In this document: positions 512-63,432 of the stretch, piece by piece
How positions within the stretch are numbered: position 1 is the stretch's first letter
Layout of the letters: each line of letters begins with the position of its first letter
Assembly: GCA_033239005.1 (NCBI GenBank)
Contig: BSQZ01000080.1
Span: forward strand, 62,001 to 126,000
Origin: Lamellibrachia satsuma
Lineage: Eukaryota; Annelida; Polychaeta; Sabellida; Siboglinidae
Direction: 5' to 3'
Length of the DNA: 64,000 bases
Made by a program: the position numbers and the translations under genes
Notes under the pieces: model-generated
What the model saw: the letters and a program-made list of their open reading frames with translations, nothing else
The model's database searches: none
Told to the model about the DNA's origin: nothing

Positions 512-698
512 TAAATCATTTTAATGGAAATTATAAAACAAAATGTTATAATGAATAGGAATCATTTGTACAATTCCTAGTTGTTCCTTTTAATAACAAA
601 ATAAATGTATACACGAATGAAGACATTGCCCAACCTACTTATGGCAGGATTCCCTTTTCCTCAATTCTATAATAATGTTTGAACCATTTATGTGTTAC

Positions 699-852
699 CC
701 CCAAGGTTTCTCCGATGCACCCAAGAGGGCGCTGTCATATGTCCTTGTGCGCTGGATGCCTTATCTACCGATGTCTCAACCTCTGATACAGCCTCTTCTG
801 CATCTTCATCTTTCACGTCCACAAAACGCTCCTCTTCGTCATCATCAATATC
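699..852 (-). CDS. CEBPZ: CEBPZ exon 18 (last one in window)
   Basis: 51 codons plus one base. An acidic stretch (DIDDDEEERFVDVKDEDAEE) leads into APSWVHRRNLG; the SWVH block follows the acidic linker in family members. Acceptor CTTGCAG, donor GTAACA. The remaining exons lie left of position 1. Confidence 0.87.
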
Positions 853-6302: not shown

Positions 6303-6364
<62 letters not shown>

Positions 6365-23478: not shown

Positions 23479-23721
23479 ATGGCGAAACCACAGACTGATC
23501 ATGACCGTCGCCGTCAAATCAGTGTGAGAGGCATAGCCCAAGTTGCTGACGTTACAAACTTGAAGAAAACGTTTAACCGACACCTTCATTACACATTAGT
23601 GAAGGACAGAAATGTTGCGACTGACAGAGATTATTATTTTGCTCTCGCCAACACTGTCCGTGACCAGTTAGTTGGCCGATGGATCCGAACTCAGCAGTAC
23701 TATTATGAAAAAGATCCTAAG
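23479..23721 (+). CDS. PYG: Phosphorylase exon 1 (residues 1-81)
   Basis: Starts [18 protein letters not shown]. Ser15 in RRQIS is the phosphorylase kinase site. It continues [37 protein letters not shown] and [10 protein letters not shown] with the Arg70 and Tyr76 positions of the AMP site. ATG context is CAGGATGG. Donor AAG|GTAGGT. The last 24 exon bases plus intron are duplicated just downstream. Confidence 0.98.
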
Positions 23722-47900: not shown

Positions 47901-50900
47901 CATGTCTCAGATATCATAATAAAAAAAAACGGTATCTTAAGCTTATATACATAATCTCTGATTTTATAAAAATTGGTGTTAAAGCTTCTGGCATTAAAAC
48001 GAATGAACGACAAACCTGTCCTTATCGTTTAATTCTTAAGAAATTTCTCTTCTGTGTAGTAGTACATTTTGTACAAATATTGGTGTAAAAATTATTGTTT
48101 GGATCAATTTCATTTTTGCAATCACAACGGTTGTATTCTGAAATGTTAAACGATTTAAAATTTAAAGCTGAACATTGTTCATATAAGTTGTACATATTTA
48201 CATCAACATCCAGTTCTGAGTGAACACATTTTAATTCATTATTGTTAATGTCATAAAAAGGAAAAACCTTGATACACCTATTACAATAGAAAGGGAAAGT
48301 GTCTTTACCTGTGTTTGATAGTTGATTTTTTTAAATGTGTTTTTCTCAAGTGTATTGGTATTTCACACAGAGAACATTTCAATTTGTTTCCAGCCATAAT
48401 GAATAGTTAACACTCATGTTCGAGTCAGTCCAGGATTGTCTAATATTCCATGTAGAGGTGTGTGTTCTTGATTCTCTCTTCTGACCAAATGAGTTTGAAG
48501 AGATCATCCGGGTTGTCGAGTGTCAACTTCTTCTCCCTGCCATTCTCCGACACTATGCAGTGGATTCTGCCATTGTGAGTGAATGTGTGTTTGACGGAGG
48601 GGTCCTTTTTCAGCTCTCATAGCAGTGCACTTCGCAGTGAAGTCAAATCTACGAATATACAGGTAGTATAGGAGCAATGGATGTTAATGATCATTGACAA
48701 TAGCATGGTTTGAGGTTTCCCTTTTGAGGAAGCAAACAGGAACTGCACTAGCCCACTGTGTCATAGGTGGAAGAACCGGATGACTGGCTGCGTTACGGCT
48801 GTCCTTGGGAGAAGGCAAGGCCAGAGTACACTATCCCTGTCAACTTCTATGGGCATGTGGACAAGAACGAAACTGGATCCCACTGGGTGAACACTCAAGT
48901 ACGATTTACTGTCTCTTGTCGTCTTCCCTAAAATTAATGTACACTTGTGAGTTCATGATTGAAAGAACTAGCAATTCTACTGTTGCAAATGTTATTACCA
49001 ACAGCTTTACCATCTCTTGTTTGAATTGAACAGTAAGGAACAGTTTTAACCATTATTGACCCCCATGAATACCCATTCACTGGCTTCTTGACAAGCCTGT
49101 AAGCATTAAGCACTATTTGGTACAACACCAGTAAGTTTCTATGACATCAAGCTGAAAGACTTCACAGAGGTAGCCAAATGTAGTCAAGTCAACAAGATTA
49201 GACAATATCTTGTCATAATAATGTTTATACTCGTTCACATTTATACTTTATTGTACTGCCCCCACCCCTCAGGTAGTTGAAAATCACTCATGAAATCCAA
49301 CACAAGTAGTGAGGGATGCTCTTACCGACAGTCACTGTTTGACCAATGCTGGTGCCCTTTCACTGCAGGAATAAAATTTTATCTTGTTTCGAATATTTTT
49401 TTTTTTTTTGAGAATGGTATAAAAGTTGATATTGAAAATAATTGCAATTGGGTTCTGTACATGGGGTGGCAGATTTGCAGAGAAATAGACCTGGAGCTGG
49501 TTTGAAGGTTTCACGAAGCATTTGTGCCGTACAAGGGAACTTATACCAATGTTTGACGAAATTTAAGTAACTCGGAACAGTCGTAGAAAACATGCGTAGT
49601 GTTGAGAACAATTATATGTATCTACAAACTACTCTTCATGCAAAGGTTCGTGAAACCAGCCCCTGGCTATTGATGTGACACAAAACTGATGACAACAGCT
49701 TATTTAACATATAAGCGATATTCTTGAAATTAAAATAAATACTGACATCATTTCTTTTAAGCATCCAACAAGTTCATAACAAATATATATAATTTAATAG
49801 TCCAGTTGCCACTTACCAAATGCACCATTAAGGTCATCTTTGATCATCTTGGCATAATATCTTGGGTGAAATTAATAGCTAAGTCCAACTGTATACATTG
49901 TTTGCATTGTGAAGATTAAATTAGATGTGGCGTTGCTAGGTGGTGCTAGCCATGCCATTTGATAACCCTGTGCCAGGGTACGGCAACAACTGCGTGAACA
50001 CGCTGAGACTGTGGTCAGCAAGGGCGCCATCTAGCTTCCATCTGCACTTCTGTAAGTGTCGCAGATGGCAGTGCTTGCTAACTTGCACTTCATTCGATGT
50101 TTCTTTATATGCGTTTCAATTACTGGTATTTTTTGTAGGATTATGTTGTACATGTGGTCAGGTCAGCTGATAGTAATTAAATATATATATGTGATACTGG
50201 TGTATTACTCTTTATTATTATTATGAAAATAGTAAACATTTTGGGCATTGTTACAATGCGAGTTGTTGACTGTTAAAATCATGTATTCATATGAAATGAA
50301 AGAAATGCAGCAAGGTGCAAAGATTTTTTTAAGTAGATTGATGGGATACAAATGGGGGTGGGGACTTAGGTTTCACCAAGTGTGACATTACTGCCTTATT
50401 TTAGACAACAGCACTGGTCAATGATCAAACTGCCAACATGTAATATGCAAGTTTGATTATTTGTTGGACCAACTATATTTGTTATATTACAAACACGTGT
50501 GCATAGTCTGGTTATAGTGTTCATGAAAGACACCTGACCATAAAAGGCCTATATATCAACAGCAGTGTGCACACTGTATCCTACACACAGGTGTTGGTGT
50601 ATGTATGAATGCGGTTGTGTTTGTCTGTTAGTCAACAGTGGGGACTACATCCAGGCTGTGTGTGACAGGAACCTGGCTGAGAACATCTCCAAGGTGCTCT
50701 ATCCAAATGACAACGTATGTACCTACATACACGCCTTCTCTCAGTGCTCTGTCCCAATGACAACGTATGTACCTACACACCCTCCTCTCAGTGCTCTGTC
50801 CCAATGACAACGTATGTACCTACACACATGCCTTCTTTCAGTGCTCTGTCCCAATGACAATGTATGTACCTACACACACGCCTTCTCTCCGTGCTCTGTC

Positions 50901-53900
50901 CCAATGACAATGTATGTACCTACACACGCCTTCTCTCGGTGCTCTGTCCCAATGACAACGTATGTACCTACACACACGCCTTCTCTCAGTGCTCTGTCCC
51001 AATGACAACGTATGTACCTACACACATGCCTTCTCTCAGTGCTCTGTCCCAGTGACAACGTATGTACCTACACACGCCTTCTCTCAGTGCTCTGTCCCAA
51101 TGACGACGTATGTACCTACACACACCTTCTCTCAGTGCTCTGTCCCAATGACGACGTATGTACCTACACACGCCTTCTCTCAGTGCTCTGTCCCAGTGAC
51201 AACGTATGTACCTACACACGCCTTCTCTCAGTGCTCTGTCCCAATGACGACGTATGTACCTACACACACGCCTTCTCTCAGTGCTCTGTCCCAATGACAA
51301 CGTATGTACCTACACACGCCTTCTCTCAGTGCTCTGTCCCAATGACGACGTATGTACCTACACACACGCCTTCTCTCAGTGCTCTGTCCCAATGACAACG
51401 TATGTACCTACACACGCCTTCTCTCAGTGCTCTGTCCCAATGACAACGTATGTACCTACACACACGCCTTCTCTCAGTGCTCTGTCCCAATGACAACGTA
51501 TGTACCTACACACACGCCTTCTCTCAGTGCTCTGTCCCAATGACGACGTATGTACCTACACACGCCTTCTCTCAGTGCTCTGTCCCAATGACAACATATG
51601 TACCTACACACGCCTTCTCTCAGTGCTCTGTCCCAATGACGACGTATGTACCTACACACACGCCTTCTCTCAGTGCTCTTCATAATACAATGATAAGAAT
51701 TATTTTTTGGGCTTGGCCTGAAAAAATTAATTATTATAATGAATGCATCTATACATCTTAATATTCATGACATGTTTGCGATTTCAAAATTGTTTGCAAG
51801 TTAACAAACGGTGCTATTACTGTAACAAGTTAACAAACGGTGCTATTACTGTAACTGAATTGAACTGTATCAGCACCAACAGTAGATATATTCAATATAT
51901 TTCTTATGTATAAAATAAGAGAGTAAAATAATGAATGTTTACTGAATAAAAAGCAAATTTTTTTCTAAGATAAAAGTTACAATCATAAAGATGTTTGGTA
52001 CATGGCTGTCATTACTGCTATGTATCTACGTTCTCACCATAAGACGAATGTTCAATTTAAATTATAACAAATTAATGATAAAATCACAGATTATGTACCA
52101 TAATTCTTTTCTCTTGCCCTTCTGTCACTGATCTGCCTCGGTAGTAATTGTGTGGTGTTTGTCAGGTGTTCATTGGCAAGGAGCTGCGACTAAAGCAGGA
52201 ATACTTCCTCGTGGCAGCCACCCTTCAGGACATCCTGCGACGCTACAAGTCATCAAAGTTTGGCAGTCGCGACCCTGTCCGCACATCATTTGATGCGTTC
52301 CCCGACAAGGTAACTATTGGGACCCGCCACTCATTTTATGCAGTGCTGTGTTTAAATAAGTTGTTTTGAACTGACGGTAGCTAGAGTTAGTCTATAATAT
52401 CTGACAAATGTCAGTCACTGGCAGGATAACTACATTTTTTATGTGAGATGTAGAAAGTAACTCCAGTGTGTTCAGTCTTATTGCAGTAATAAGTAATCTG
52501 ACCTTTATGCCATGCTTACTTACCGTAAATTCTGTATTTGTAGACGCACCCCTAATTAAAGCCGCACCCCGACTTTTGACATAAACCCCAACTTTCCTCC
52601 GCACCGTTTGTTGCAGGCAAAAACCTTATTTAAAGCCGCACCCGGACTTTGAGCCAAGACCGTTTTAACGCGCTTCATGTGACGAATTTCCGTAGCGCAC
52701 ACAATTAGGAACAATGTAGATGGGTTTTGCAAAAAAGTTATAACTTTGCTAATAATTATCATAAACGAATGAATGAGGTCTAATTTTATTGTTAAAAGAG
52801 TCTCTAATGTAATGCAATGATAATAAATACATCACATTGTATAATCATGGGAATATTACTATGTGAATTTAAAACAAAGATGAACAAATATCACCGTGCT
52901 ACCAGATAATAACTGGGTGGCTGAATGCCCATGCACCCAGTGGGAGAAATGTAGCCATACATGTTGGCTATGCAATAAAGCTCAAATTATTCAAATATGT
53001 TGAGAAGTTTTGTTTGTATGATGTTTTATGTAGAACCATGTATAATGTTGCATGTATTGCAGCAGATTAAAAAGACTACCCTAGGTCTGTCTGTTGTTGT
53101 GCCAGCTGTTTCGAAGGTGTTTGAGTGACAGCCGGTAACTATGTAATAACTGGACGTCTCGATCTACCAGCTGCAGCCTCCGAGAACGGATGTTGTGGTT
53201 TTACCTATTTCTTGGAAAGTTCCTGTTGTTGTTGTGTCTTCGTTGGCCTAATGCCCTGGTACTCACAAGCATTTGATCAAATGTTAGCGCATTCAATTCA
53301 ACAAGCCTGGTCATTGTTTATTTACTCTCGAGTTGTTTCTGGGGTTGTGCACTGCTGACTTCACACAACTTTTCAAGGATTATAAAACAGTCTGTTGTAA
53401 ATGCAATTGTCTCCAACGAATGACAATGCATGTTGATTACATAATCGGCAAGGCGTGACCGTTATTCTTAGAACTACTGATTGACAGATTGGTCTAGTTC
53501 CCAGACAGTTTACTGGCACGCGTTAACGGGGCCACTTGCATAGAATACCAGGTGCTTGGGATTATAACACCGTATCTTGTACCAGAGTAAATGTAATTAA
53601 CTCCAACGAGGCACTGGTAGCGATGTTGCTTTGACAATTGGACGTAGCCAGCAAGCTTGGAGCTTGGAACTCCTCATAAAAGTAACGCAACTTAAAACAT
53701 CAAAACCTGAAACCATGCACGACATCGATGTTGCTGTAATCCCCGGCGGTCTGACGCTGCCAGTACAGCCGTGTGACGTTAACATCAATCGCCCATTCAA
53801 GCAGCAGATGCGACACTGTGGGAGCATTGGATGATTCACAGCGCTCACTCCCGGAGGCCGCCGTCGTGCGCCGGCCAAGGAGATTCTTGTACAATGGCTC

Positions 53901-56900
53901 GTGAAGGCGTGGGGTGTGATTCCATCTGCCACGATTGAATACAGTTACAAGAAGTGCCGCATCTCCAGCAATGGAACGGACGACATCATGGTCGAAGATT
54001 TTTGCCGGTGCATGCAGCCATGGTCAGCAACGCCGATGACTCGTAATCAGACACGGACACTTGGGATGACGCCGCCATGCCGGTATACCGGCAGCGTTCT
54101 TCGACAGCGACGACTAAAGTGATTTTGAAGAATTTAAACTGTGACATGATTTGACATGTTTGATTATAGTTTTTGAACACTGCGGACACATGTTTTTATG
54201 TAATTATTTGTTATGCACCAGTGGCAATTTTAATACAAAGTTTTATTGATGCATCCGACTTCGTTTTTTTACTGATTATAAACCGCTATTTTTCGCACTA
54301 ATAGCCGTTACTACTGACAACCCAATGAGCCAACTTTTGCATTTTTTCGGCAAATTACTGTATTTAAAGCCGCACACCAACTTTGCAGTCATCATCATCA
54401 ATTCGGTTACACGCTATTGTAATTGAAGCCACGGCTACAAATAGAGAATTTATGGTACTTGTCCTCTTCGTACCTTGTTGGTGCATAAGGCCACACCTTT
54501 ATGTCATATATCCGTGTAGTGACATGTCACTGATAAATGACACACCTGCAGAATTTCAGCTGAACATAAATGTGCAAAAGTCATGTGGGATGTTTTAAGA
54601 ATCCATTATGTTATGTCAGGTTAGCTCGGTTATATTACATACAGAGTACAGTTGTGACACAGCAGTGCTGGAGGGCAACAGACTAGAATACATCAGTTTC
54701 TACTCTTTCCTTCCAGAGAAATGTCTAAGCTCTATAAAATAGTAGAGATATAAATTCCACAGTAAATGATTACAGTGCAACACCAAATGGGGAATAGACA
54801 TTTATATATGTACACACCTATTGTGTGCTCGTACGGATAGAGAGGGGGAGCTGGGGAGTGAGGGAGGGAGGGACATAAGGAGGGAAGCAAAGAGAGAGTG
54901 AGAGGGAAGGAAGGCGAGACAGAGATAGATATACTCAAACTACAGAACTCTGTGTGCATGTGTGTGGTTTAATTCTGCTAATCTATCATTCTTTTTGATT
55001 TGTTCATCAATTATGAAAAACTATGTTGTACTGTTGATATTAATATACTTAAGATATACTTCAGTTATTGATAAAAAAATTATGTAAAAAAAATTACCAA
55101 CTCTTAGGATAATAACCACAATAGAGAAATTACATTCACTAGCCAAATCTTCAGAATGTTGATATTATCCAGCTGCCACTGAAATGATGAGAGAATGTGT
55201 TGTTTCATTTTCCATGTATGTTTGGTTCGGTGCAGGTGGCCATGCAGTTGAACGATACACATCCCTCTCTTGCCATTGCCGAACTGATGCGCCTCTTAGT
55301 AGATAATGAACATATGTCCTGGGACGAGGTAGGACTGCCTGGTACAGACTGACACACGTTCCTGCACTGCATGCTTCTCCTGCACTGGTGCCCCACTTGC
55401 CTATCCCGCTGCTCTTTCTATGAATTGTTTGTGCATTGCCTGCAGGTCGCGATACAGCTTAATGACACCCATCCATCGATGGCCGTGGTGGAACTGATGC
55501 GATTTTTTATGGACATTGAAAAGATGGATTGGGATCGGGTAGGATGAAATGTGTTATTTCTGAAGTTGTTAATTTAAGGAAGTTGTGTTATGATTATTCT
55601 TGACCAATATTCATATCACCAAAATTAATCTTTTACTATAAGGTTATAACGTCATGTTCTCAGTCCAGAGAACCCGGGTTCCAATTTTCTTGTTGCTGTT
55701 TTGAAGCTTTGGTAGTTTCGTTCATCCCACATTGCCACATTTCACTCAGCTGTATAAATGAATACCTGATATGCGCAACCTTACCTAAGTGCTGGTCTTT
55801 TGAGCTGCAGTGAAACCCTCATCCTCAGTATGTGTTACATAACTTACACTACTATGTTGAATTATGCTGAGGACGGACGGACACAGACTTGGTACTCTCT
55901 GGCTTTCAGCCTAACAATATAAACACACATGTAACACATAACAATTTTCCTGCCTTTTTGCAACTTAGTCTGCATGGTTTGTGCTTTAGTAATAGTTTCC
56001 TGCTGCTTCACTAGTAGTTTCCTGCTGCTTCACTAGTAGTTTCCTGCTGCTTCACTAGTAGTTTCCTGCTGCTTCACTAGTAGTTTCCTGCAGTACAGCT
56101 AAAGTTGTTATCTGTCACCTACTAACTACCAGGTATAACACTTAATTAAATAATGTATAACAGTTTCTTTGAACAGAACAATTAAGAAATGTTTGAGTGT
56201 GTGTATATAGGCATGTGCAAGTATCCATGTACATGACTTCATGTGGTGCAAGTATCCATGTACATGACTTCATGTGGTGCAAGTATCCATGTACATGACT
56301 TCATGTGGTGCAAGTATCCATGTACATGACTTCATGTGAACTTGTACTTGCATACATTCATTCTTGTAAACAATAAAAAAATTAAATAGATATAATATTA
56401 TGTTAATTATGTTTGTAATTTGGAAATGTCTTGGAAACATTTTGAGATACTGTAATGATGTAAACAACATTATGATGCTGCTGCTGTGAATTAAGTTACG
56501 ACTTATAAGTGGTTGACCATTCTGAAACTGTTGAAATATTAGTTCTGAAACAAGTTGAAACGACTAATATTAATCGGTCACATTGTTCTGAACACCAAAC
56601 GTTGACATTGTTTATCAGTTATATTTAATTTCTGCGGCTAAATACTTGAATTGTGAAAACATGACCTATTTATAAACTGCGAGAATTAATGGAAACTTGA
56701 GTGAGGAGATGACAGGGAGTGAGGACGAACAATTTCTATTTTTAATCCAGGATAGCTTTCTTACTCAGCACGTGCTAGAACCAACCAGGGGAGAAAATGT
56801 ATTAGATATAGTTTTGTCATCACAAAAAGATTTAGTCGACAATGTAAAAACACTTGAACCATTGGGTAACAGTGACCATAATCAAATACATTTTGACATC

Positions 56901-59900
56901 AATGTAAAATCAGAAAGTAAAAATAAGAAAATGTACAAGAGAAACTTCCACAAAGGTAGAAATGAGAAAATACTTAGCAAAGCTAGATTGGAATAACATG
57001 CTGATGAATAAGACCGCAATTGAATGTTGGAACATTCTAAAATATGAAATTGAGAGTATCATCGATAAATTTGTTCCCTTCCAAAAACAAGGAAAACGGT
57101 GTAGAAAGAAACACTTGTCAAAAGAGGCTATTAGAAAAATAGTGTTAAAACAAACTATGTGGAGGGTTTATAGGCGTACCAGAATGGAAGAAGACTACAA
57201 ATTACAAAGAGGCACTTAATGCAGCTACAACTGAAATCAGACAATCTAAAAGAAGCTATGAGCAAAAACTAGCATGTAGCATAAAAATTACAGCAAGAGT
57301 TTTAATACATATGTCAAGAGTAAACAAAACGTACAAGACAAGGTTGGACCTCTAGAAGATAGTGCTGGAAATATAATATCACAGGGGTTTTTAATGGCGG
57401 AAGACCTAAATGGTTACTTCAGTTCAGTGTTTACCAAAGAAGATATTAGTTCATTACCAGTTCCTGATGCTCTTCATTATTCTTAATATATATCAATGAC
57501 TTGGACGACAGTATAACAAGTAACGTACTGAAATTTGTGGATGACACAAAACTGTTTAGAAAGGTTAATACTGATGGTGATAAAGAACATTTACAAAACG
57601 ATCTAGACAGATTAGTGAAATGGTCTGAGAAATGGCAGATATTGTTCAATTTTGGGAGATGTAAATGCCTATATACAGGACGTGGGAACTTGGATGTAAA
57701 CTATAAAATGGGAGATACTGTTCTGGGTACTACTGTAAAAGAAAAGGACTTAGGAGTTACAATAAGCGCTGATATGAAAGTTTCAGAGCAGTGTGGTATT
57801 GTACCTTCAAAGGGTAATCAAATTCTTGGATTGATTAGAAGAAACATAACATACAAGGGAAAAAAGTTAATTATACCTCTTTATAAAGCAATAGTTAGAC
57901 CTCATTTAGAATACTGTATACAAGCATGAAGACCATATCGTAAGAAGGATATAGATACGTTTGAACACATACAAAGGAGAGCAACTAAAATGATTCCAGA
58001 ACTGAGAGACCTTAGTTATGAAGAACGCCTGAAAGAATGTGGTTTAACAACTCTAGAGACAAGGAGGTTAAGAGGAGATCAGATTGAAGTTTTTAAGATA
58101 TTGAATGGGTATGAAAATATTGATAGAAATATGTTTTTCTCACTCAAGAAGGATAGCAGAACTAGAGGACATGAGGTAAAATTAGTAAAGGATCAATGTA
58201 GATTGGACATCAGGAAGCACTCGTTCTCACAGAGGACAATAAATGAATGGAACAAATTGTCTACAGATTGTGTAACTGCTAGCAGCGTGAATATGTTTAA
58301 AAACAAGGTTGACACATATCTCAGGAGGCTGGGTTATAAGTAGATGAACATTGTTGGACTTTCGATAAGCCAATGGCTTCCTTGTCCACTTGTCATCTGG
58401 GCCTTTGGCTTGGATGGCAAATCTTGTTAAATCTTGACTTGGTTGGAATGTGTCAGGCATGGGGAATCACAACGAAGGCATGTGCCTACACCAACCACAC
58501 TGTGCTCCCCGAGGCCCTGGAACGCTGGCCGTGCACCCTGCTCGGTCACCTCCTGCCCAGACACCTTGAGATCATCTACGATATAAACTCCCGCTTCCTC
58601 AAGGTACCTGGTTTACGCATCTCTTCAGTTGTTGTTTACTGCAGTTGCCTCCCTTTATGGTCGACAATCGGTCAATCAAATATTTAAGCAAAACAACACA
58701 AGGATTGGTGGGTTTCGTTAAACCACATGTATATACTTAGTAGCCCCACTGTGCACAGGTAACCAGTTCTTAATTATTTGTACACAGATAATCATACTTC
58801 ACCTATTTCAAATAACGTTCACACATCGTCCATATTATGAAATAGAATAGTTGAACTATATATGAGTTTGAATGAATTCTATTAATTTGTCGTAATTATC
58901 TGTACTGCTTTGTCAAATGTTTCACCCTCTAGGTTCAAATAACAACAGTCCCTGCCTAACATTCACAAAAAGTCACAGTCCTAGATTAACTTGTTGAGAA
59001 TTATGAACAAGACATGACAGCCGCGTCAGTGTGACTGATCATTGCCTGCCTGCAGCTTGTGACAGCCAAGTGGCCCAACGAGCCAGACCGTGTCCGTCGC
59101 ATGTCGCTCGTTGAGGAGGACCCAGAGAAAAGAATCAACATGGCACATCTTGCTATCGTCGGCAGTCACGTAGTGAATGGAGTCGCAGCCATTCATTCGC
59201 AGATCATCAAGGACACGACGTGAGTGCTATTGTCATCCTTCATGTGATGATCTTCTGGTTGGTTATGTACAGCTGTAAGCCGTGGCTGCAGATAAGTCTG
59301 TTGTTTCCTTCATTTAGTATTTACTATTATTATCTGAATGCTTCGCTTTGACCAAAGTGCTTTGAGCAGTCCCAAGTACTGGATGCCATGCTATTTAAGA
59401 ACATACCTTTTTATTGTATTCCATAAATTTTATCTGAGTCAAAATTTCTGCTTTATTCTGTACACAGCTTCAAGGATTTCTACGAACTGTGGCCGGAGAA
59501 ATTCCAGAACAAGACGAACGGCATCACCCCCCGCCGCTGGCTTCTACTGTGCAACCCCAGCCTGTCCGATGTCATTGCTGATGTAATAATCATGTGTATG
59601 ATTGACACAGCGTGGTGTTTAGGGGGTTTGCATAAGTTCTCAAAGTCCAAAACCATACAGCATTACGTATTGGTGGGTGGTGGTTTGGTTGACCACATTT
59701 CATGGGACAAACGAATGCTTTTTGATTGGCAATATGCATGTTATCTTATATCCCACAATGAGGGGTATGTGGTGGTCTGAACCACTTCTAAGCACTGTAT
59801 GGTTTTTGGACTTTGAGAACTTTTGCGACGACCTCCTAGTAAACCTGTCTTTACCTACTGCTTTTTCAGATGTTTTTTATTGACACTTGACACTCTGACA

Positions 59901-62900
59901 AGAGTAACTACTTACATCAAGACAGCCCTCTACGTTAACTTTTTTGTCTAGGAGCCAACTGGCTTCTACCTACATTTTTTTAGGAGCAAAATAAAAAATT
60001 TAGGAGCCAAATAATTGTGTGTGCATTTATACATATAATAGTGTTTTATACAAGTACAGCACCAAATTATTCCTAATCCAAATTTGTCTACAGACATCCG
60101 TTTATTAATGTAAAAGTGAAATGCAAATTAAAAACGTATGAATATGTGACCAGATACTATAGTCTGCGTTATAACACGTTACACTAACAAATTAATAACA
60201 GCCATGTGGAATCCTTGAAATTACCAATAATTAGCAATAAGCATACATTATAAATTGATGTCAACTTCTGTTTCTTGTACTGAACAGTCTGTAGCACGAT
60301 CAAACATCACTGCCAAATACAAACTTTTTTGAGACAATCCGTGATGCTGCCAGCAAACTGTGCACACTTGACGTCGTTGGCATACGCATAGGACATGATG
60401 CCATTCTTTTTTTGCATTCCCAGAAGTGGGTAAAATTTTTTGAATGCCATCCTTCACAATTGTGTAAGCCGTTTTAAATTTAACTACGAGATCGTCTTGG
60501 GTACGTTCGGATTCTTTGGCCCACTGCGTATCCAGCACCCTGAACAGCGGCCCTGTGTGATCCAAGCAGACGTCACAACACTTACCATGTCGGCTGCTAC
60601 TGGCGTGCTTTGTCAGGGTTTTTTGTTTGAAATTGCTATGTCAAAAAAACACATCATCAGTTTCTTCTAGCTATCATATTTCAACCAGTCGAAATAGCAT
60701 AACCAATCTTGCTGAAACGTTCTGACTTGTCTTTAATGGCTGACGTCGTGGCTGCAGAACTGCTGAGTTTTGGCGCTGAAGTGTCTTTGACTTCATCTTT
60801 TTGTTCAAACGGGGCAGTTTCTGCCACTTTCGTTTGCTAGACTCGCAGAAAACAGAATACACCCCATTCACACATCAAGCGATAAGAGAAACAGCGCACA
60901 CAAAAAACGAGAATGAGTTGCAGTACACACGATAATTTCCGACAAACGCCACACGATTTATGAAATGACAACACATGATCTGTTATCAACAACTTGTCGC
61001 GGTCGCTAGTGGGCAACCGTACAAAATGTGTTAGTTGCCAAACAGAAAAAACAGTCACATTTGTGACCAAATCAGTCGCAATGTAGAAGGCTGCAAGATA
61101 CTGCCTGTTTTGAGAAATTATGTTTTATTTTGGTGCTAGAAACATGTTACTTCACCTAGCATAACTAATCACTGTTTTACAGATTTTGTAAAATGTGGTA
61201 ACACTACATGGATAGGCATAAAGTTGTCTTTTAAAAACATTGTAATGCATGGTACATGAAACAACAATTTATTAGTAAGCAATTTTCAGATGCTTGTATA
61301 AATGTGTTGAGAGTACATTTTGCACGGTGGAATTATATATAAGTTTACTATGTCAGCAACAGTTTTTCTTGTTGTTATGGGGCCATTCAAACTAAAAAAA
61401 ATTTAACATTGAGCATTCAAATTCTGCCTATGACTCCACCAGGGAGCCAGACAACCAGTGAAAAATAATGTAGGGGAAGCAAAAAAACAGGTTCACAACG
61501 CCCATATAAAGCCATCAAGAAACGTTTTCCTCCAGTTGTCTAGAAAATATGTATATTAATTGAATCTCTATCGAATCAAGTTGTAGGATGTTCTATGTTC
61601 GGTCTGTCTGGTACGTTGGCATTGGTGTCAAGTGAAATTTTGTTTTGCAGAAAATTGGCAACCAGTGGATCACCCATTTGGACGATCTGCGTCAGCTCGC
61701 TCAGTTCAAGAACGACAGAAACTTGTTGGGGCAGCTGCAGAAGGTCAAACAGGTGAGGCTTAGTTTAGCAGCTCAAACTTCATGTAGACAAGGTATTTCT
61801 TCTCCATGGGTATTTGATAACACCTATTATAACGTTTGATAAGTGATACAGCAAGGTTGACAGTTTCGCTCAGTCTCACTTATCCCTTGACTGGGCTGAT
61901 TGTAGGGTTGCATGCTTGGAAGCCTAGTCAGAAACCATCCTCCATTTGGCATGGTTGTGAGCCGCATCGAACAGCTCCCGTAACTCCAGAACTATCCATT
62001 CACGAAGTTGTTGACCCAAATTTTAGGTGGTCTGCCTCTTTTTTGTCTGCCTTTGATGAAAAAGAGGCAGACCACCAAAAATGTGGATCATGGGTGTGTG
62101 TGTGTGTACCATATTTATTGCATTTAGCTGACAACAAAGCTCTGTTGAAGAGGTCCGTGACTTTCTGTATAGAGTGGTAAGTGATGGTGCATATTGATTT
62201 GCACCTGCAGGAGAACAAGCTGCGATTAGCTGCCTTCATTCAGAAGACCTACAACCTCACGGTCGACCCGACATCCATCTTTGACATGCAGGTGAAACGT
62301 ATCCACGAGTACAAACGTCAGCTGCTCAACATCCTGCACGTCATCACCATCTACAACCGGCTCAAGGCCAACCCAAACATGCCATTTGTGGCACGCACTG
62401 TCATGATTGGTGGCAAGGTAATGTGTCCCCAGGTGGCAAGGTAATGTGTCCTCAGGTGGCAAGGTAATGTGTCTTCAGGTGGCAAGGTAATGTGTCGTCA
62501 GGTGGCAAGGTAATGTGTCCTCAGGTGGCAAGGTAATGTGTTCTCAGGTGGCAAGGTAATGTGTCGTCAGGTGGCAAGGTAATGTGTCCTCAGGTGGCAA
62601 GGTAATGTGTTCTCAGGTGGCAAGGTAATGTGTCGTCAGGTGGCAAGGTAATGTGTCCTCAGGTGGCAAGGTAATGTGTTCTCAGGTGGCAAGGTAATGT
62701 GTCGTCAGGTGGCAAGGTAATGTGTCCTCAGGTGGCAAGGTAATGTGTTCTCAGGTGGCAAGGTAATGTGTCGTCAGGTGGCAAGGTAGTGTGTCCTCAG
62801 GTGGCAAGGTAGTGTGTTCTCAGGTGGCAAGGTAATGTGTCTTCAGGTGGCAAGGTAATGTGTCCTCAGGTGGCAAGGTAATGTGTCTTCAGGTGGCAAG

Positions 62901-63432
62901 GTAATGTGTCCTCGGGTGGCAAGGTAATGTGTCCTCAGGTGGCAAGGTAATGTGTCCTCAGGTGGCAAGGTGCATGGGTTCAATACAGGCGTTTTTCAGC
63001 AGTTGACATGTTAAAGTTCCCTCTTCAATTGACTTAGGCCATTGTCAATGAGGTTTGTTAATGTTTAAATCTGTAGTGTTTAAATAGTCTAAGTAATATA
63101 GATAAATATAATAAAAGAGTGCATACTTTTGTTAAAATCCGAAAGAAGTAACTTTGATTGTTAGGTCAAAGGATAAATGGTTAAAGACTAACATGTGAAC
63201 ATGGTTGCAGGCTGCTCCTGGATACCACATGGCCAAGTTAATCATCAAGCTGTTTAATTCAGTGGCCAATGTCATCAACACCGACCCAATCATTGGTAAG
63301 CGTTTGCGTATTGTGTTCCTTGAGAACTACCGCGTGTCGATGGCAGAGAAGATCATCCCAGCCGCCGATCTGAGTGAACAGATCTCGACTGCTGGCACCG
63401 AGGCCTCAGGCACTGGCAACATGAAGTTCATG
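23479..63432 (+). CDS. PYG: Glycogen phosphorylase gene, 14 exon positions, 3' end off window
   Basis: Glycogen phosphorylase (EC 2.4.1.1) releases glucose-1-phosphate from cytosolic glycogen, using pyridoxal phosphate (PLP) as cofactor. The spliced product is colinear with the vertebrate enzymes without a net gap. With initiator Met counted as 1, using one copy of exon 8 puts key residues at canonical numbers: Ser15 (regulatory phosphoserine, RRQISVRG), Tyr76 (AMP site), Leu137 (glycine-rich loop), Asn285 (280s loop), Asp340 and His342, His378, Arg570 and Lys575 (phosphate site), Lys681 (PLP Schiff base, NMKFM). The N-terminal regulatory elements indicate hormone- and AMP-type control. 683 of about 840 codons are in the window. 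All junctions are GT-AG and in phase. The introns are very large and repeat-filled. Confidence 0.98.
23698..24033. repeat. Tandem duplication of phosphorylase exon 1 end and donor (167 bp)
   Basis: The last 24 bases of exon 1 (TACTATTATGAAAAAGATCC...), its donor and about 140 bp of intron (23698-23864) are copied once immediately downstream (23865-about 24033). In the copy the donor GT has become GC (AAGGCGGGT), so it is probably not used. The copy is preceded by TTTACTCCAAG. Confidence 0.92.
24626..24994. mobile_element. hAT-type MITE with perfect 8 bp target duplication
   Basis: 369 bp AT-rich element that starts CAGGGTTG and ends with its inverse CAACCCTG, flanked by ATACAAAC on both sides (24618-24625 and 24995-25002). 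Inner ends are rich in ATTTAAATCA palindromes. No coding capacity. An 8 bp target duplication and CAGGG ends are typical of the hAT superfamily. Confidence 0.9.
25585..26079 (-). CDS. Intact 164-residue ORF with zinc-finger-like block, hAT-related N-terminus
   Basis: Reads [54 protein letters not shown]. The C-x-x-C ... H-x(5)-H spacing with G-K-D and K-D-x-L-x-K-H-E resembles the TTF/BED-like finger at the start of ZNF862-type hAT-derived proteins. No transposase core follows, and the ORF lies antisense in phosphorylase intron 1. It may be a truncated hAT copy or a short domesticated finger. No junctions or promoter can be named. Confidence 0.45.
   Translation of the reverse strand: MSDSDGTLAAAIFYRQVLIAHEQMKCWTNSCFALLHKADWFIRFAWLIHNSKSYVFRCKVCVHAKAKNVFVTGKDCAKPKKDNLTKHEISADHQRSMLLPKRQMGFVTANDHTKSAIIAQMWTVLTQAKHSLPTVKNAFIRGSLQDLGGFTGLVKRVDLSQRPE
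27100..27215. repeat. Short dispersed repeat (ACTTGTCCACCAGA)
   Basis: TTCACTTGTCCACCAGACAA here recurs as TTCACTTGTCCACCAGATAA at 28321, followed there by more TTGTCC motifs up to 28420. It may be two ends of one element or two copies; intervening sequence 27220-28240 shows no other recognised feature. Confidence 0.4.
27990..28320 (+). mobile_element. LINE/SINE 3' end (GCGCTATATCAAATAAAA tail)
   Basis: An AT-rich stretch ends AAAGTGCCATGAACAATTTA, then GGCGCTATATCAAATAAAAT and an ATT-rich run, a typical retroposon tail in invertebrates. A related tail (GCACTATATAAATA) occurs at 34222. Confidence 0.4.
29862..30056 (+). mobile_element. tRNA-derived SINE
   Basis: Box A-like CATAGTGGTTAGAACACAAG and box B-like GAGAACCCGAGTTCCAATGC are followed by a conserved body with CTCAGCTGTATAAGCGAGTA. 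The body and promoter layout match the copy at 55630-55800. Confidence 0.75.
31040..31508. repeat. Minisatellite, 91 bp unit, about 5 copies
   Basis: Units contain GATATGGTGAAATCACTTGC, ATCATCATCATGGAGTTCAA, GAACCATGGAGAGTGTATCA and CATGGATTTATGGAACCACA. Located in phosphorylase intron 1. ORFs on both strands arise from the repeat, because 91 shifts the frame by one each copy. Confidence 0.95.
32100..32130. repeat. (TG)n microsatellite
   Basis: TGTGTGCGTGTGTGTGTGTG tract in phosphorylase intron 1. Confidence 0.95.
32872..33006. repeat. (CA)n and (ACGC)n compound microsatellite
   Basis: CA-rich run followed by ACGC repeats. The histidine/threonine/arginine-rich ORFs over it are low-complexity artefacts. 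The rest of 31.5-34.6 kb is intron with no other recognised feature except a short retroposon-like tail near 34222. Confidence 0.95.
34665..34766 (+). CDS. PYG: Phosphorylase exon 2 (82-115)
   Basis: 34 codons, [20 protein letters not shown] to DEALYQ, phase 0, acceptor TTTGCAG, donor [19 protein letters not shown] follows EKDPK exactly as in all family members. It lies 11 kb after exon 1. Confidence 0.97.
35434..35616 (+). CDS. PYG: Phosphorylase exon 3 (116-176)
   Basis: 61 codons with the catalytic glycine-rich loop [20 protein letters not shown], then [14 protein letters not shown] and EDGWQ. Acceptor TTGTGCAG, donor GTATGT. Leu137 sits in the active-site pocket. Confidence 0.98.
36015..36203 (-). 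repeat. Ngaro split direct repeat B2 (3' end)
   Basis: 189 bp copy of B1. The outer border with the host is not certain, because a similar TCACTGTACCGTATGTCATA stretch also occurs at about 35900. Confidence 0.85.
36264..36547 (-). repeat. Ngaro split direct repeat A2
   Basis: 284 bp copy of A1, lying between B1 and B2 near the 3' end of the element. Confidence 0.93.
36569..36757 (-). repeat. Ngaro split direct repeat B1
   Basis: 189 bp, AAATGGCAATGCCCTTTAAT to CCCAGAAACCACC, matching 36015-36203 at an offset of 554 bp. About 20 bp separate it from A2. Confidence 0.92.
37877..38805 (-). pseudogene. Ngaro tyrosine recombinase, split in three frames
   Basis: Three overlapping ORFs (38805-38500, 38555-38070, 38218-37877) together cover a tyrosine recombinase: an N-terminal SAM-like part ([18 protein letters not shown]), a middle part, and a C-terminal part with [20 protein letters not shown], then [11 protein letters not shown], which holds the final His/Arg and the Tyr nucleophile. 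This enzyme joins element circles to the target. At least two frame breaks mean no single protein is made from the sequence as given. Confidence 0.82.
38760..40654 (-). CDS. Ngaro reverse transcriptase and RNase H, one frame break
   Basis: The reverse transcriptase part (40300-39350) has [70 protein letters not shown] and the catalytic LDDF (39657-39668). The frame shifts near 39350. RNase H follows with [48 protein letters not shown] and the ADALSR ending. The N-terminal 100 residues overlap gag in another frame. Acts in the element's replication; the break should inactivate a fused protein unless it is a sequence error. Confidence 0.88.
40345..41448 (-). CDS. Ngaro gag-like ORF, frameshifted before the zinc knuckle
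   Basis: Starts [20 protein letters not shown], followed by a coiled-coil segment ([19 protein letters not shown]), a Pro/Thr-rich linker and a helical capsid-like part ([20 protein letters not shown]). The ORF stops at 40441, but the next frame continues [20 protein letters not shown] and [14 protein letters not shown], a CCHC knuckle typical of gag C-termini in this order. So one indel near 40.5 kb separates capsid and knuckle. Binding element RNA is the known role. Confidence 0.8.
41940..42256. repeat. 37 bp tandem repeat in the Ngaro leader, about 8 copies
   Basis: GC-rich unit CATCGCGTCCAATGCGCGGT plus CGCACACCTGTGCGGAA upstream of gag on the minus strand. CGCACACCTGTGCG inside each unit is nearly self-complementary. 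ORFs here in all frames are artefacts of the repeat. Confidence 0.93.
43408..43691 (-). repeat. Ngaro split direct repeat A1 (5' end)
   Basis: 284 bp, seemingly identical to 36264-36547 (offset 7144), from AAAACTTAACAAACGAGCGA to AATACTGATTTT. Confidence 0.93.
43692..45120. other. Phosphorylase intron 3 between Ngaro element and LINE
   Basis: AT-rich intron of about 1.4 kb; no coding block, structured repeat or RNA gene was recognised. Confidence 0.5.
45130..48400 (-). mobile_element. Degenerate LINE with endonuclease and reverse transcriptase
   Basis: Minus strand in order: Cys-rich start ([20 protein letters not shown] near 48396, then CNRC and CDC), AP endonuclease pieces ([42 protein letters not shown]), reverse transcriptase ([66 protein letters not shown]) and a C-terminal part to 45224. 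Multiple stops and frame changes occur. The catalytic ADD motif is missing: ILTFILF runs directly into VCSGKD. It is an APE-type LINE of the CR1/jockey-like group; exact clade not assigned. Confidence 0.88.
48767..48898 (+). CDS. PYG: Phosphorylase exon 4 (177-220)
   Basis: 44 codons: [20 protein letters not shown], then [13 protein letters not shown], then HWVNTQ. Acceptor TCATAG, donor GTACGA (weak). It is separated from exon 3 by 13 kb that holds the Ngaro-type element and a LINE. Confidence 0.96.
48899..49939. other. Phosphorylase intron 4
   Basis: 1 kb of AT-rich intron; no recognised element. Confidence 0.5.
49940..50051 (+). CDS. PYG: Phosphorylase exon 5 (221-257)
   Basis: 37 codons plus one base: [20 protein letters not shown], then [17 protein letters not shown]. 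Acceptor TTGCTAG, donor GTAAGT. The VxAxPYDxPVPGY and NTxRLWSAxAP blocks are canonical. Confidence 0.97.
50632..50714 (+). CDS. PYG: Phosphorylase exon 6 (258-285; tower helix and 280s loop)
   Basis: 83 bp: [20 protein letters not shown], then KVLYPNDN. It codes the tower helix and ends in the 280s gate loop, with Asn285 (Asn284 in mature rabbit numbering). Acceptor CTGTTAG, donor AAC|GTATGT. The exon end and donor seed an array of about 20 units directly downstream. Confidence 0.95.
50700..51682. repeat. 48-50 bp array copied from phosphorylase exon 6 end and donor, about 20 units
   Basis: Each unit is ATGACAAC|GTATGTACCTAC, then ACACACGCC, TTCTCTCAGTGCTCTGTCCC. The ATGACAAC part copies the exon end that codes Asn-Asp-Asn of the 280s loop, and GTATGT copies the donor. 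Variants include GACGAC|GTATGT and one CAACATATGT copy that lost the GT. Units of 48 bp keep frame, units of 50 bp do not. Confidence 0.95.
52166..52309 (+). CDS. PYG: Phosphorylase exon 7 (286-333)
   Basis: 48 codons: [48 protein letters not shown]. The [10 protein letters not shown] segment holds the two arginines that contact AMP in the allosteric site. Acceptor TTGTCAG, donor GTAACT. Confidence 0.97.
52523..54455 (+). mobile_element. pogo/Tigger-like DNA transposon, decayed, with TIRs and TA duplication
   Basis: Left end TA|CCGTAAATTCTGTATTTGTA and right end, inverted, CCATAAATTCTCTATTTGTA|TA, with TA on both outer sides, define a 1.93 kb element in phosphorylase intron 7. Inside, plus-strand reading at 53700-54000 gives [31 protein letters not shown] and [18 protein letters not shown], the C-terminal part of pogo-type DDE transposases. 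The upstream catalytic region is not readable. ATTAAAGCCGCACCC-type motifs repeat near both ends. Confidence 0.8.
55236..55328 (+). CDS. PYG: Phosphorylase exon 8a (334-364), first of two alternative copies
   Basis: 31 codons, phase 0 both ends: [20 protein letters not shown], then [17 protein letters not shown] holds Asp340 and His342 near the catalytic centre. Acceptor GGTGCAG, donor GTAGGA. It has the same length and phase as exon 8b, 117 bp downstream. Both are intact, so mutually exclusive splicing is likely. Using both would insert 31 extra residues without a frameshift. Confidence 0.93.
55446..55538 (+). CDS. PYG: Phosphorylase exon 8b (334-364), second alternative copy
   Basis: 31 codons: [20 protein letters not shown], then [11 protein letters not shown]. 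The active-site NDTHPS is kept while the helix residues differ from exon 8a at about 11 positions. The MDWDR end is closer to the vertebrate muscle sequence. Acceptor CTGCAG, donor GTAGGA, identical to the 8a donor. Confidence 0.93.
55630..55805 (+). mobile_element. tRNA-derived SINE, second copy
   Basis: GAGAACCCGGGTTCCAATTT (box B-like) and a body with CTCAGCTGTATAAATGAATA CCTG parallel the copy at 29862-30056. The box A side is weaker. It lies 90 bp after exon 8b. Confidence 0.7.
56027..56092. repeat. 19-20 bp tandem repeat, about 4-5 copies
   Basis: TAGTTTCCTGCTGCTTCAC unit in phosphorylase intron 8. Confidence 0.9.
56215..56338. repeat. 31 bp tandem repeat, 4 copies
   Basis: Unit GTGCAAGTATCCATGTACAT plus GACTTCATGTG. 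In phosphorylase intron 8. Confidence 0.92.
56680..58432 (+). mobile_element. LINE with internal deletion, ends just before exon 9
   Basis: Order on plus: endonuclease end ([30 protein letters not shown]), linker ([31 protein letters not shown]), a sudden jump near 57467 that removes most of the reverse transcriptase, then the palm with FVDDTKLF and [13 protein letters not shown], thumb ([17 protein letters not shown]) and C-terminus (IHKHSF-like [38 protein letters not shown], stop at 58341). Its 3' tail ends GGCAAATCTTGTTAAA at about 58432, as in the copies at 7.4 and 18.7 kb. Dead but fairly young looking; CR1-like group is likely. Confidence 0.87.
58457..58603 (+). CDS. PYG: Phosphorylase exon 9 (365-413)
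   Basis: 49 codons: [49 protein letters not shown]. His378 in [14 protein letters not shown] is the active-site histidine. Acceptor GTGTCAG, donor GTACCT. A LINE 3' tail ends about 25 bp upstream of the acceptor. Confidence 0.97.
58604..59055. other. Phosphorylase intron 9
   Basis: 450 bp intron; nothing recognised apart from normal splice signals. Confidence 0.5.
59056..59219 (+). CDS. PYG: Phosphorylase exon 10 (414-467)
   Basis: 54 codons plus two bases: [49 protein letters not shown]. Acceptor CCTGCAG, donor GTGAGT. RMSLxEE, NMAHL and GSHxVNGVAxxHS are canonical. Confidence 0.97.
59468..59582 (+). CDS. PYG: Phosphorylase exon 11 (468-506)
   Basis: After a split Thr codon: [52 protein letters not shown] is an invariant family motif. 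Acceptor ACACAG, donor GTAATA (weak at +5). Confidence 0.96.
59923..61093 (-). mobile_element. TIR DNA transposon relic (hAT-like) with minus-strand ORF pieces
   Basis: The left end CAGCCCTCTACGTTAAC and the right end, inverted, CAGCCTTCTACATTGCG give short terminal inverted repeats 1171 bp apart. Both flanks share only CAAGA, not a clear 8 bp duplication. Minus-strand ORFs 60871-60674 and 60565-60248 read as a Lys-rich start ([18 protein letters not shown]), then [20 protein letters not shown], and a Cys/His-rich end. Probably a non-autonomous, internally deleted hAT-like copy in phosphorylase intron 11. Confidence 0.5.
61651..61752 (+). CDS. PYG: Phosphorylase exon 12 (507-540)
   Basis: 34 codons: [20 protein letters not shown], then [14 protein letters not shown]. 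Acceptor TTTTGCAG, donor GTGAGG. It corresponds to the variable helical segment before the phosphate-binding region. Confidence 0.95.
62012..62090. repeat. Hairpin: 32 bp inverted repeat with 15 nt loop
   Basis: Arms 62012-62043 and 62059-62090 are inverted copies with a few mismatches; the inner 18 bp (GGTGGTCTGCCTCTTTTT) pair perfectly. In phosphorylase intron 12. It may be a small foldback element or an RNA hairpin. Confidence 0.8.
62211..62417 (+). CDS. PYG: Phosphorylase exon 13 (541-609)
   Basis: 69 codons: [76 protein letters not shown] holds Arg570 and Lys575 that bind phosphate. Acceptor CTGCAG, donor GGCAAG|GTAATG. The last nine exon bases and the donor are repeated about 25 times downstream. 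Confidence 0.97.
62409..62972. repeat. 23 bp array copied from phosphorylase exon 13 end and donor, about 25 units
   Basis: Unit GGTGGCAAGGTAATGTGTCC plus TCA. GGTGGCAAG is the exon end (Gly-Gly-Lys) and GTAATG the donor. Between units the sequence reads TCAG|GTGGCAAG|GTAATG, so each unit looks like an 8 nt exon between an acceptor-like AG and a donor. Third bases vary (TCCTCA, TTCTCA, TCGTCA) in a repeating higher-order order. Confidence 0.96.
63211..63432 (+). CDS. PYG: Phosphorylase exon 14 (610-683), PLP lysine
   Basis: 74 codons: [62 protein letters not shown]. Lys681 in NMKFM forms the Schiff base with pyridoxal phosphate. Acceptor TTGCAG, donor GTGTGT. About 160 further residues lie beyond the right edge. 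Confidence 0.97.

What the first reader, a model, noticed from the sequence alone, without database searches (positions are those of the whole stretch)
55236..55538. Tandem alternative exon 8a/8b in the catalytic domain of glycogen phosphorylase
Two 93 bp exons, 117 bp apart, share phase, borders and the NDTHPS active-site motif but differ at about 11 of 31 residues. With exactly one copy, Ser15, Leu137, Asn285, His378, Arg570 and Lys681 all fall at vertebrate numbering; with both they would be shifted by 31. Both copies have good splice sites and no stops, so selection appears to keep both. Mutually exclusive splicing would give two enzyme isoforms with different helices next to Asp340/His342. 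I know of no such isoform pair for this enzyme family, but I could not search.
Basis: partly seen in the sequence, partly recalled or inferred. Interest (0 to 1): 0.9.

Follow-up and report, generated by a model that had tools for sequence, protein, structure and literature searches.

The report
Tubeworm enzyme with swappable exon pair
In what looks like a tubeworm, the gene for glycogen phosphorylase, the enzyme that breaks down stored glycogen, carries two interchangeable versions of the exon that forms part of its active site, so one gene can probably make two forms of the enzyme.

Summary
Two 93-nt, phase 0-0, GT-AG exons (8a 55236-55328, 8b 55446-55538) lie 117 nt apart in the one glycogen phosphorylase gene found in a siboglinid-like annelid assembly. 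Each alone restores vertebrate numbering. They encode the same strand / NDTHP loop / helix unit and differ at 11 of 31 residues. Identity is 50/62 at codon positions 1+2 but 11/31 at position 3, so the duplication is old and both copies look constrained. The stretch has one match in the 735-Mb assembly, so it is no paralogue collapse. An annelid of another order, Paralvinella palmiformis, has a predicted protein with three head-to-tail copies of this exon in frame, as expected if a gene finder chained tandem alternative exons; Ridgeia's carries an 8a-type copy alone. Best reading: mutually exclusive exons giving two isoforms. Exclusivity may be steric: the only yTnAy branch-point consensus in 8b's 96-nt AG-free tract sits 24 nt from 8a's donor, as in OGDH exons 4a/4b; plausible, not proven. 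No transcript data were available. The open-access searches showed no such pair for this enzyme. It is a new member of a known kind, closest in spirit to coq-2.

The parts
55236..55328 (+). Alternative exon 8a (31 codons, residues 334-364), [31 protein letters not shown]
   Evidence: 28/31 identical to the same segment of the Ridgeia piscesae protein P0003
55446..55538 (+). Alternative exon 8b (31 codons, residues 334-364), [31 protein letters not shown]
   Evidence: of the three Paralvinella copies closest to copy 3 (23/31)
55329..55445 (+). Intervening intron, 117 nt, shortest of the 14 introns between successive modelled exons (the other 13 are 248-13150 nt)
55349..55353 (+). Candidate distant branch point CTGAC, A at 55352 = 24 nt from the 8a donor, 93 nt from exon 8b (inferred)
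55348..55443 (+). 96-nt AG-free stretch upstream of the 8b acceptor, the longest of the 14 acceptors (next 85)
55420..55424 (+). Weak competing local branch-point candidate ATGAA, A at 55423, 22 nt from exon 8b; if used, steric exclusion fails
55392..55396 (+). Second-best-scoring branch-point-like site CCCAC, A at 55395, 67 nt from the 8a donor and 50 nt from exon 8b; also outside the steric limit if used
52166..52309 (+). Constitutive exon 7 of glycogen phosphorylase, donor AAG|gtaact
58457..58603 (+). Constitutive exon 9, acceptor tgtcag|GCATGG
23479..23721 (+). Exon 1 (start codon, RRQIS Ser15 site)
34665..34766 (+). Exon 2
35434..35616 (+). Exon 3
48767..48898 (+). Exon 4
49940..50051 (+). 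Exon 5
50632..50714 (+). Exon 6
59056..59219 (+). Exon 10
59468..59582 (+). Exon 11
61651..61752 (+). Exon 12
62211..62417 (+). Exon 13 (Arg570)
63211..63432 (+). Exon 14 (to Lys681-Met683); matches to the rest of the Ridgeia protein, to its last residue, lie beyond the window in L009/L010

Best explanation
Exons 8a and 8b are an old tandem duplication of one coding exon in the animal's one detected glycogen phosphorylase gene, used as mutually exclusive alternatives. Each mRNA joins exon 7 to either 8a or 8b and then exon 9, giving two enzymes of equal length. They share Asp340, His342 and the rest of the NDTHP loop but differ mainly in the helix that follows (about 342-357) and the turn after it. 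Shown here: the two intact exons, sequence constraint on both, a unique locus, in-frame equivalence, and a three-copy version in another annelid order (a gene prediction). Inferred: mutually exclusive use. Inferred more weakly: exclusivity is steric. The branch point for 8b would lie 24 nt from the 8a donor, too near for 8a-8b joining, so 8b could only be joined to exon 7. Inferred weakest: the choice tunes glycogen breakdown by tissue or oxygen state.
For: Exact exon pair, phase, donors, acceptors and vertebrate register with one copy. Codon positions 1+2 50/62 versus position 3 11/31 identical, p 2.6e-5; pS 0.83, pN 0.22. One match in the assembly; all 13 phosphorylase matches on one contig. 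P0002 Paralvinella palmiformis has three tandem 31-residue copies joined exactly at exon borders, the only directly adjacent array among 335 records, which are the best 120 listed by each of three searches plus our own 8a peptide. P0003 Ridgeia piscesae has one copy, 28/31 identical to 8a, with the other 13 modelled exons 616/652. Single copies in the eight other annelid-clade proteins. The exon covers one strand-loop-helix unit (strand 336-339, helix 342-357 in the Ridgeia model). Intron 117 nt, AG-free tract 96 nt, sole yTnAy in it at +24. That motif scores best in this intron (5.62, next 2.78) and above the best local motif of each of the 13 other introns (at most 5.18). The full anatomy occurs in 148 of 10000 shuffles and 1 of 204 same-length GT..AG pieces of the window, that piece being this intron. 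Published precedent for this layout: OGDH (PMC7969005, passages).
Against: No RNA evidence. Many similar neighbouring exons are not mutually exclusive (PMC5740500, passage). Double inclusion or skipping keeps the frame, so decay of wrong mRNAs cannot enforce exclusivity. The branch-point case is modest: 864 of 10000 shuffles put the best site within 50 nt of the donor and 1112 have as long an AG-free tract; 26 of 3634 AGs in the window, this one included, have as long a tract; the weight matrix was recalled and approximate; two lower-scoring sites, CCCAC at +67 and ATGAA at +95, would both lie beyond the steric limit. Both copies lack Pro348, present in 205 of 209 single-copy proteins and in all three Paralvinella copies, and a tree holding 8a, 8b and the Ridgeia exon together scored slightly better than the free tree, which fits a separate duplication in the tubeworm line as well as shared origin. 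The 31-residue tree is unresolved. The Paralvinella array is a gene prediction with an odd N-terminus.
Confidence: 0.82

Rival explanations
1. The exons are mutually exclusive, but exclusivity is set by splicing factors and not by a distant branch point; 8b uses a nearer branch site (55395, 55423 or an unrecognised one).
For: CCCAC at +67 (2.78) and ATGAA at 22 nt from 8b (1.76) exist; the latter scores like the best sites of the exon 6 acceptor (1.84 and 1.76). Potential steric interference was found in only 57 clusters (9%) of human mutually exclusive exons (PMC5740500 passage).
Against: The +24 CTGAC scores far best and is the only yTnAy in a 96-nt AG-free tract. Full anatomy in 148 of 10000 shuffles.
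Confidence: 0.45
2. Both exons are included together, giving an enzyme with a 31-residue repeat in the catalytic core, or they are independent cassettes.
For: Frame is kept with both. The Paralvinella prediction contains all three copies.
Against: It would shift every residue after 364 by 31 and double a strand-loop-helix unit that carries catalytic residues. Of 335 records only P0002 has directly adjacent copies, and it is a gene prediction. P0122, P0236 and P0239 repeat blocks of several exons with exon-8 segments identical to each other, and P0237 repeats a long block with diverged copies 315 residues apart.
Confidence: 0.04
3. One copy is a decaying relic and only the other is used.
For: Ridgeia's annotated protein shows 8a only. 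8b carries several residues rare in relatives (V347 in 2 of 209, V348 in none, F353 in 4).
Against: Position-3 identity 11/31 against 50/62 at positions 1+2; no stop, no frameshift, intact splice sites. N339-P343, E349, R352, D356 and W362, each found in 209 of 209 relatives, are kept in both.
Confidence: 0.05
4. The pair arose separately in siboglinids and alvinellids, a repeated exon-level duplication, so the Paralvinella array is a parallel and not an orthologue.
For: Both tubeworm copies lack Pro348 while all three Paralvinella copies have it. Holding 8a, 8b and the Ridgeia exon together gave a log-likelihood 1.77 higher than the free tree; none of the four groupings put to the AU test is rejected (p 0.45-0.55).
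Against: 8a and Paralvinella copy 1, both 5'-most, share Met336; 8b and copy 3, both 3'-most, agree at 23/31, joined in the 31-residue tree with support 61.8 only. M/L336 occurs in 6 of 8 single-copy annelid-clade proteins against 2 of 202 others, as if an a-type exon were old in annelids; these rows are related, so the count is not a set of independent events.
Confidence: 0.4
5. Assembly artefact: collapsed haplotypes or two paralogous genes joined.
For: None found.
Against: One 100% match to the 403-bp stretch in 735 Mb; all 13 reported phosphorylase matches on one contig in gene order; flanks of the two exons are unlike, 18/60 and 21/60 identical without gaps.
Confidence: 0.01

Closest known systems
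coq-2 (COQ2) exons 6a/6e in nematodes, flatworms, annelids and molluscs (PMC7434440, passages; Alvinella, PMC12403961, passage)
   Same: Metabolic enzyme; two mutually exclusive exons of equal length exchange a segment near the active site; found in annelids including alvinellids
   Different: Different enzyme; the COQ-2 exons set the choice between ubiquinone and rhodoquinone and one was tested by removal. Here the NDTHP catalytic residues are identical in both copies, so a change of rate, stability or regulation is likelier than of chemistry (inference), and nothing has been tested.
OGDH exons 4a/4b (PMC7969005, passages)
   Same: Energy-metabolism enzyme; short intervening intron, long AG-free tract, branch point close to the upstream donor (25-41 nt in human, 24 nt candidate here); decayed transposon sequence in a flanking intron here (8b-E9)
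   Different: There branch points were mapped by lariat sequencing; here one is only predicted
Vertebrate glycogen phosphorylases PYGM, PYGL, PYGB
   Same: Same family; all landmark residues at the same numbers
   Different: Isoforms come from three genes (recalled). In this assembly one gene was found, with the variation inside one exon. Pig PYGM has a reported skipping of exon 12 (PMC10888101, passages), which is a cassette and not a duplicated pair.
Tandem-duplicated mutually exclusive exons in general (e.g. Dscam, muscle myosin heavy chain; PMC5740500 passages; PMC3912159 listing only)
   Same: Adjacent, homologous, equal length, same phase, one at a time expected
   Different: The open-access searches showed no case in glycogen phosphorylase. 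No docking RNA structure stood out here.

Membership tests
Glycogen phosphorylase (PF00343, animal type) | Phosphorylase domain with catalytic and regulatory landmarks (Ser15, N285, D340/H342, H378, R570, K681) | tested here: met
   Exon matches over the PF00343 cut-off; landmarks; 1-683 aligned without length change to muscle form 1z8d_A, 1192 bits
Tandem mutually exclusive exons (criteria of PMC5740500) | Neighbouring internal exons of equal length and reading frame, no stops, GT-AG | tested here: met
   93 and 93 nt, phase 0-0, GT-AG
Tandem mutually exclusive exons (criteria of PMC5740500) | Sequence homology between the exons | tested here: met
   20/31 residues, 61/93 nt; tblastn E 1e-11
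Tandem mutually exclusive exons (criteria of PMC5740500) | Transcripts contain exactly one of the two | not testable with these tools
   No RNA data for this animal; single copies in other annelid-clade proteins are indirect
Steric exclusion by distant branch point (OGDH type) | Branch point under about 50 nt from the upstream donor | tested here: inconclusive
   Best candidate at +24, but predicted only; lower-scoring sites at +67 and +95; 864 of 10000 shuffles place the best site within 50 nt
Steric exclusion by distant branch point (OGDH type) | Long AG-exclusion zone and short intervening intron | tested here: met
   96 nt, longest of 14 acceptors; 26 of 3634 AGs in the window, this one included, have as long a tract; 1112 of 10000 shuffles of this intron do; intron 117 nt
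Exclusion by U2/U12 splice-site incompatibility | One intron of the cluster with U12-type sites | tested here: not met
   Donors gtaact, gtagga, gtagga do not look U12-type; read by eye, consensus recalled
Exclusion by frameshift and mRNA decay | Double inclusion breaks the frame | tested here: not met
   Double inclusion gives +31 residues, no stop
Exclusion by competing RNA structures (Dscam type) | Pairing between intron elements beyond chance | tested here: inconclusive
   Duplex with up/down introns no better than shuffles (23 and 11 of 40 as good or better); 193 of 200 shuffles fold as stably as or more stably than the intron; only the nearest 800 nt of each flanking intron was tried

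The most novel reading that the evidence does not exclude
Annelids inherited an ancient a-type/b-type exon array in their glycogen phosphorylase gene (two copies in tubeworms, three in Paralvinella). One exon is chosen by steric branch-point exclusion, so a single gene yields enzymes with different helices beside the active site, possibly a glycogen-use switch between tissues or oxygen states parallel to the coq-2 switch. Protein databases record only one exon per species, a-type in some and b-type in others, which hides it.
Probability: 0.35. Interest if true: 0.78.

Novelty: new member of a known kind. Interest (0 to 1): 0.57.

Why it matters
Glycogen phosphorylase is a textbook allosteric enzyme, and its animal isoforms are usually explained by gene duplication (recalled). 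An exon-level isoform pair in what appears to be a single-copy gene, with the NDTHP catalytic residues kept and mainly the following helix exchanged, is a natural experiment on how that helix affects rate, stability or regulation. In annelids of low-oxygen habitats it could be a control point of glycogen use (inference, untested). The array also offers a test of steric branch-point exclusion outside vertebrates, and it warns that database proteins for annelid enzymes may record one isoform or wrongly chain several.

Tried and rejected
Multi-copy proteins other than P0002: P0122 (Paragonimus), P0236 (zebrafish) and P0239 (Chaetura pelagica, a bird by its recalled name) have two exon-8 segments each, but these lie in repeated multi-exon blocks, 102, 314 and 122 residues apart, and are identical to each other; treated as assembly or prediction artefacts. 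P0238 and P0125 are longer chimeras with one exon-8 segment.

Orthology of 8a with Paralvinella copy 1 and of 8b with copy 3: suggestive by residues and order, but the 31-residue tree is unresolved. Of five groupings, four were put to the AU test (p 0.451, 0.468, 0.48, 0.551); 8b + copy 3 was already joined, support 61.8; the grouping of both tubeworm exons with Ridgeia's scored above the free tree.

RNA docking structure: no signal over shuffles in the stretch tried. Third exon copy in the window: none found. Rfam: no match in the window at gathering score.

Structure model of the Ridgeia protein: mean pLDDT 67, poor in the N-terminal half, 67-92 in the four ten-residue blocks covering residues 331-370; used only for the order of strand and helix. 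No fold search was run since the family is certain.

Literature: nine searches in open-access PMC. Searches listed nothing. The six papers that hold both 'glycogen phosphorylase' and 'mutually exclusive exons' were checked by passages: none of the passages reports such exons in this enzyme; one reports skipping of PYGM exon 12 in pig muscle, one a differentially used first exon of glycogen phosphorylase B in trout. The two papers and most papers were seen as listings only. Subscription papers are not covered, and a recalled older survey of exon duplication (Letunic 2002) could not be read here.

Full report
WHAT IS THERE. The window carries a glycogen phosphorylase gene on the + strand, from exon 1 at 23479 to exon 14 ending at 63432; matches to the rest of the Ridgeia protein lie beyond the window on the same contig. 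Between exon 7 and exon 9 are two candidates for one exon: 8a at 55236-55328 and 8b at 55446-55538. Each is 93 nt, phase 0-0, with AG before and GT after. They are separated by 117 nt. Their translations agree at 20 of 31 residues. With either one, the protein is 683 residues long to the end of exon 14 and Ser15 to Lys681 fall at vertebrate numbering; the 8a form aligns with no length change to residues 1-683 of muscle glycogen phosphorylase.

WHOSE GENOME. The closest protein found is from the tubeworm Ridgeia piscesae (P0003): 616 of 652 residues identical over the 13 other modelled exons and 28 of 31 in exon 8a. A tree of the flanks puts the window with Ridgeia (100/100) inside a ten-row clade (100/99) with Paralvinella and Capitella. 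So the animal is a siboglinid or close to it (Annelida, Sabellida). The assembly is 735 Mb in 279 contigs.

NOT AN ARTEFACT. The 403-bp stretch holding both exons has one match in the whole assembly, and all 13 reported matches to the phosphorylase family lie on this contig in gene order. Intron flanks of the two exons are unlike, 18/60 and 21/60 identical without gaps, so this is not a recent tandem copy or a misassembly.

BOTH COPIES ARE CONSTRAINED. Codon positions 1+2 are identical at 50 of 62 sites, position 3 at 11 of 31 (Fisher p 2.6e-5). pS is 0.83 (dS saturated) and pN 0.22. With synonymous sites saturated, a freely drifting copy would have lost its protein sequence. Residues N339-P343, E349, R352, D356 and W362, each present in 209 of 209 single-copy relatives, are kept in both (the 209 are those of the 335 records with one motif and over 60% flank identity, Ridgeia set apart). 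The differences fall at 336, 345, 347, 348, 353-355, 357, 359, 361 and 364. Both lack Pro348, which 205 of the 209 have. In a model of the Ridgeia protein the exon spans one strand (336-339), the catalytic loop and one helix (342-357) (mean pLDDT 67 overall, 67-92 in the blocks covering 331-370). So the exon is a compact unit.

INDEPENDENT COMPARISON. I had 335 protein records: the best 120 listed by each of three searches, overlaps removed, plus our own 8a peptide. Five hold more than one exon-8 segment. Three (P0122, P0236, P0239) repeat blocks of several exons with identical exon-8 segments and look like artefacts; P0237 has two diverged segments 315 residues apart inside a long repeated block. 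The fifth, P0002 from Paralvinella palmiformis (Terebellida, Alvinellidae), has three different 31-residue copies directly head to tail, joined exactly at the exon borders, between exon-7 and exon-9 sequence. That is what a gene finder yields when it chains three tandem alternative exons. Copy 1 matches 8a better than 8b (21 against 16 of 31) and copy 3 matches 8b better than 8a (23 against 19); copy 2 fits 8a and 8b at 23 and 21. Met336 is shared by 8a and copy 1. M or L at 336 is found in 6 of 8 single-copy annelid-clade proteins but 2 of 202 others, hinting at an old a-type exon. Against this, the tubeworm copies share loss of Pro348, and in the 31-residue tree, which is unresolved, a grouping of both tubeworm exons with Ridgeia's scored slightly above the free tree. 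Shared or separate origin of the two arrays is therefore open.

HOW IT PROBABLY WORKS. Double inclusion and double skipping both keep the frame, so decay of wrong mRNAs cannot enforce one-of-two. Donors do not look U12-like, and RNA pairing is no better than shuffles in the stretch tried. The intervening intron is the shortest of the 14 between successive modelled exons (117 nt against 248-13150) and its acceptor has the longest AG-free tract (96 nt; next 85). Only one yTnAy lies in that tract: CTGAC, with its A 24 nt from the 8a donor. It is also the best-scoring site by an approximate, recalled weight matrix, 5.62 against 2.78 for the next. In human OGDH 4a/4b, mapped branch points lie 25-41 nt from the upstream donor, under a proposed limit of about 50 nt, and enforce exclusivity (PMC7969005, passages). 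If the same holds here, 8b can be joined only to exon 7, never to 8a. Limits: 864 of 10000 shuffles put the best site within 50 nt of the donor, 1112 have as long an AG-free tract, and 148 show the full anatomy; lower-scoring sites beyond the limit exist (CCCAC at +67, ATGAA at +95). I put about even odds on the steric mechanism and a higher probability on mutual exclusion itself.

WHAT IT RESEMBLES. The nearest functional parallel is coq-2, where helminths, annelids and molluscs exchange one exon near the active site to switch quinone synthesis (PMC7434440, passages); both exon forms were reported adjacent in Alvinella with transcript evidence of exclusive splicing in other alvinellids (PMC12403961, passage). 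That paper has no occurrence of 'glycogen' or 'phosphorylase' in its main text. Nine open-access literature searches gave no report of mutually exclusive exons in glycogen phosphorylase; the six papers that hold both terms were checked by passages, the rest mostly seen as listings. Other alternative splicing of this enzyme is on record, such as skipping of PYGM exon 12 in pig (PMC10888101, passages). The isoform roles are unknown; with identical catalytic residues a change in rate, stability or regulation is likelier than new chemistry (inference).

VERDICT. A real, old, constrained tandem exon pair, very probably mutually exclusive, in a gene where the open literature searched shows no such pair. 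It is a new member of a known kind; transcript evidence is the missing decisive piece.

Noticed in passing
window 50694-51679: A 48-bp minisatellite (about 20 copies) whose unit is the last 21 nt of exon 6 plus the first 27 nt of its intron, so the true donor is followed by many decoy donors (11 exact ACAACGTATGT in the array) and 17 acceptor-like TCTCAG.
   Followed up: partly
window 62409-62971: A second minisatellite on a donor of the same gene: 23-bp unit (about 24 copies) made of the last 9 nt of exon 13 plus 14 nt of intron, with 22 exact GGCAAGGTAATG. Of four arrays with score 300 or more inside the modelled gene span, two begin on a 5' splice site.
   Followed up: partly
window 56676-58340: Decayed non-LTR retroelement in the intron between 8b and exon 9, ending about 120 bp before exon 9; weak matches to endonuclease (E 8e-4) and reverse transcriptase (E 0.0045), both below the Pfam cut-offs.
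   Followed up: partly
window 55278-55280 and 55488-55490 (codon 348): Both 8a (Ala) and 8b (Val) lack Pro348, present in 205 of 209 single-copy relatives.
   Followed up: partly
window 53835-54119: Open reading frame in the intron before 8a that looks by eye like the tail of a pogo/Tigger-type transposase (recalled resemblance); Pfam gave no match.
   Followed up: partly
window 9956-12520: Large 39-bp tandem array, about 66 copies.
   Followed up: no
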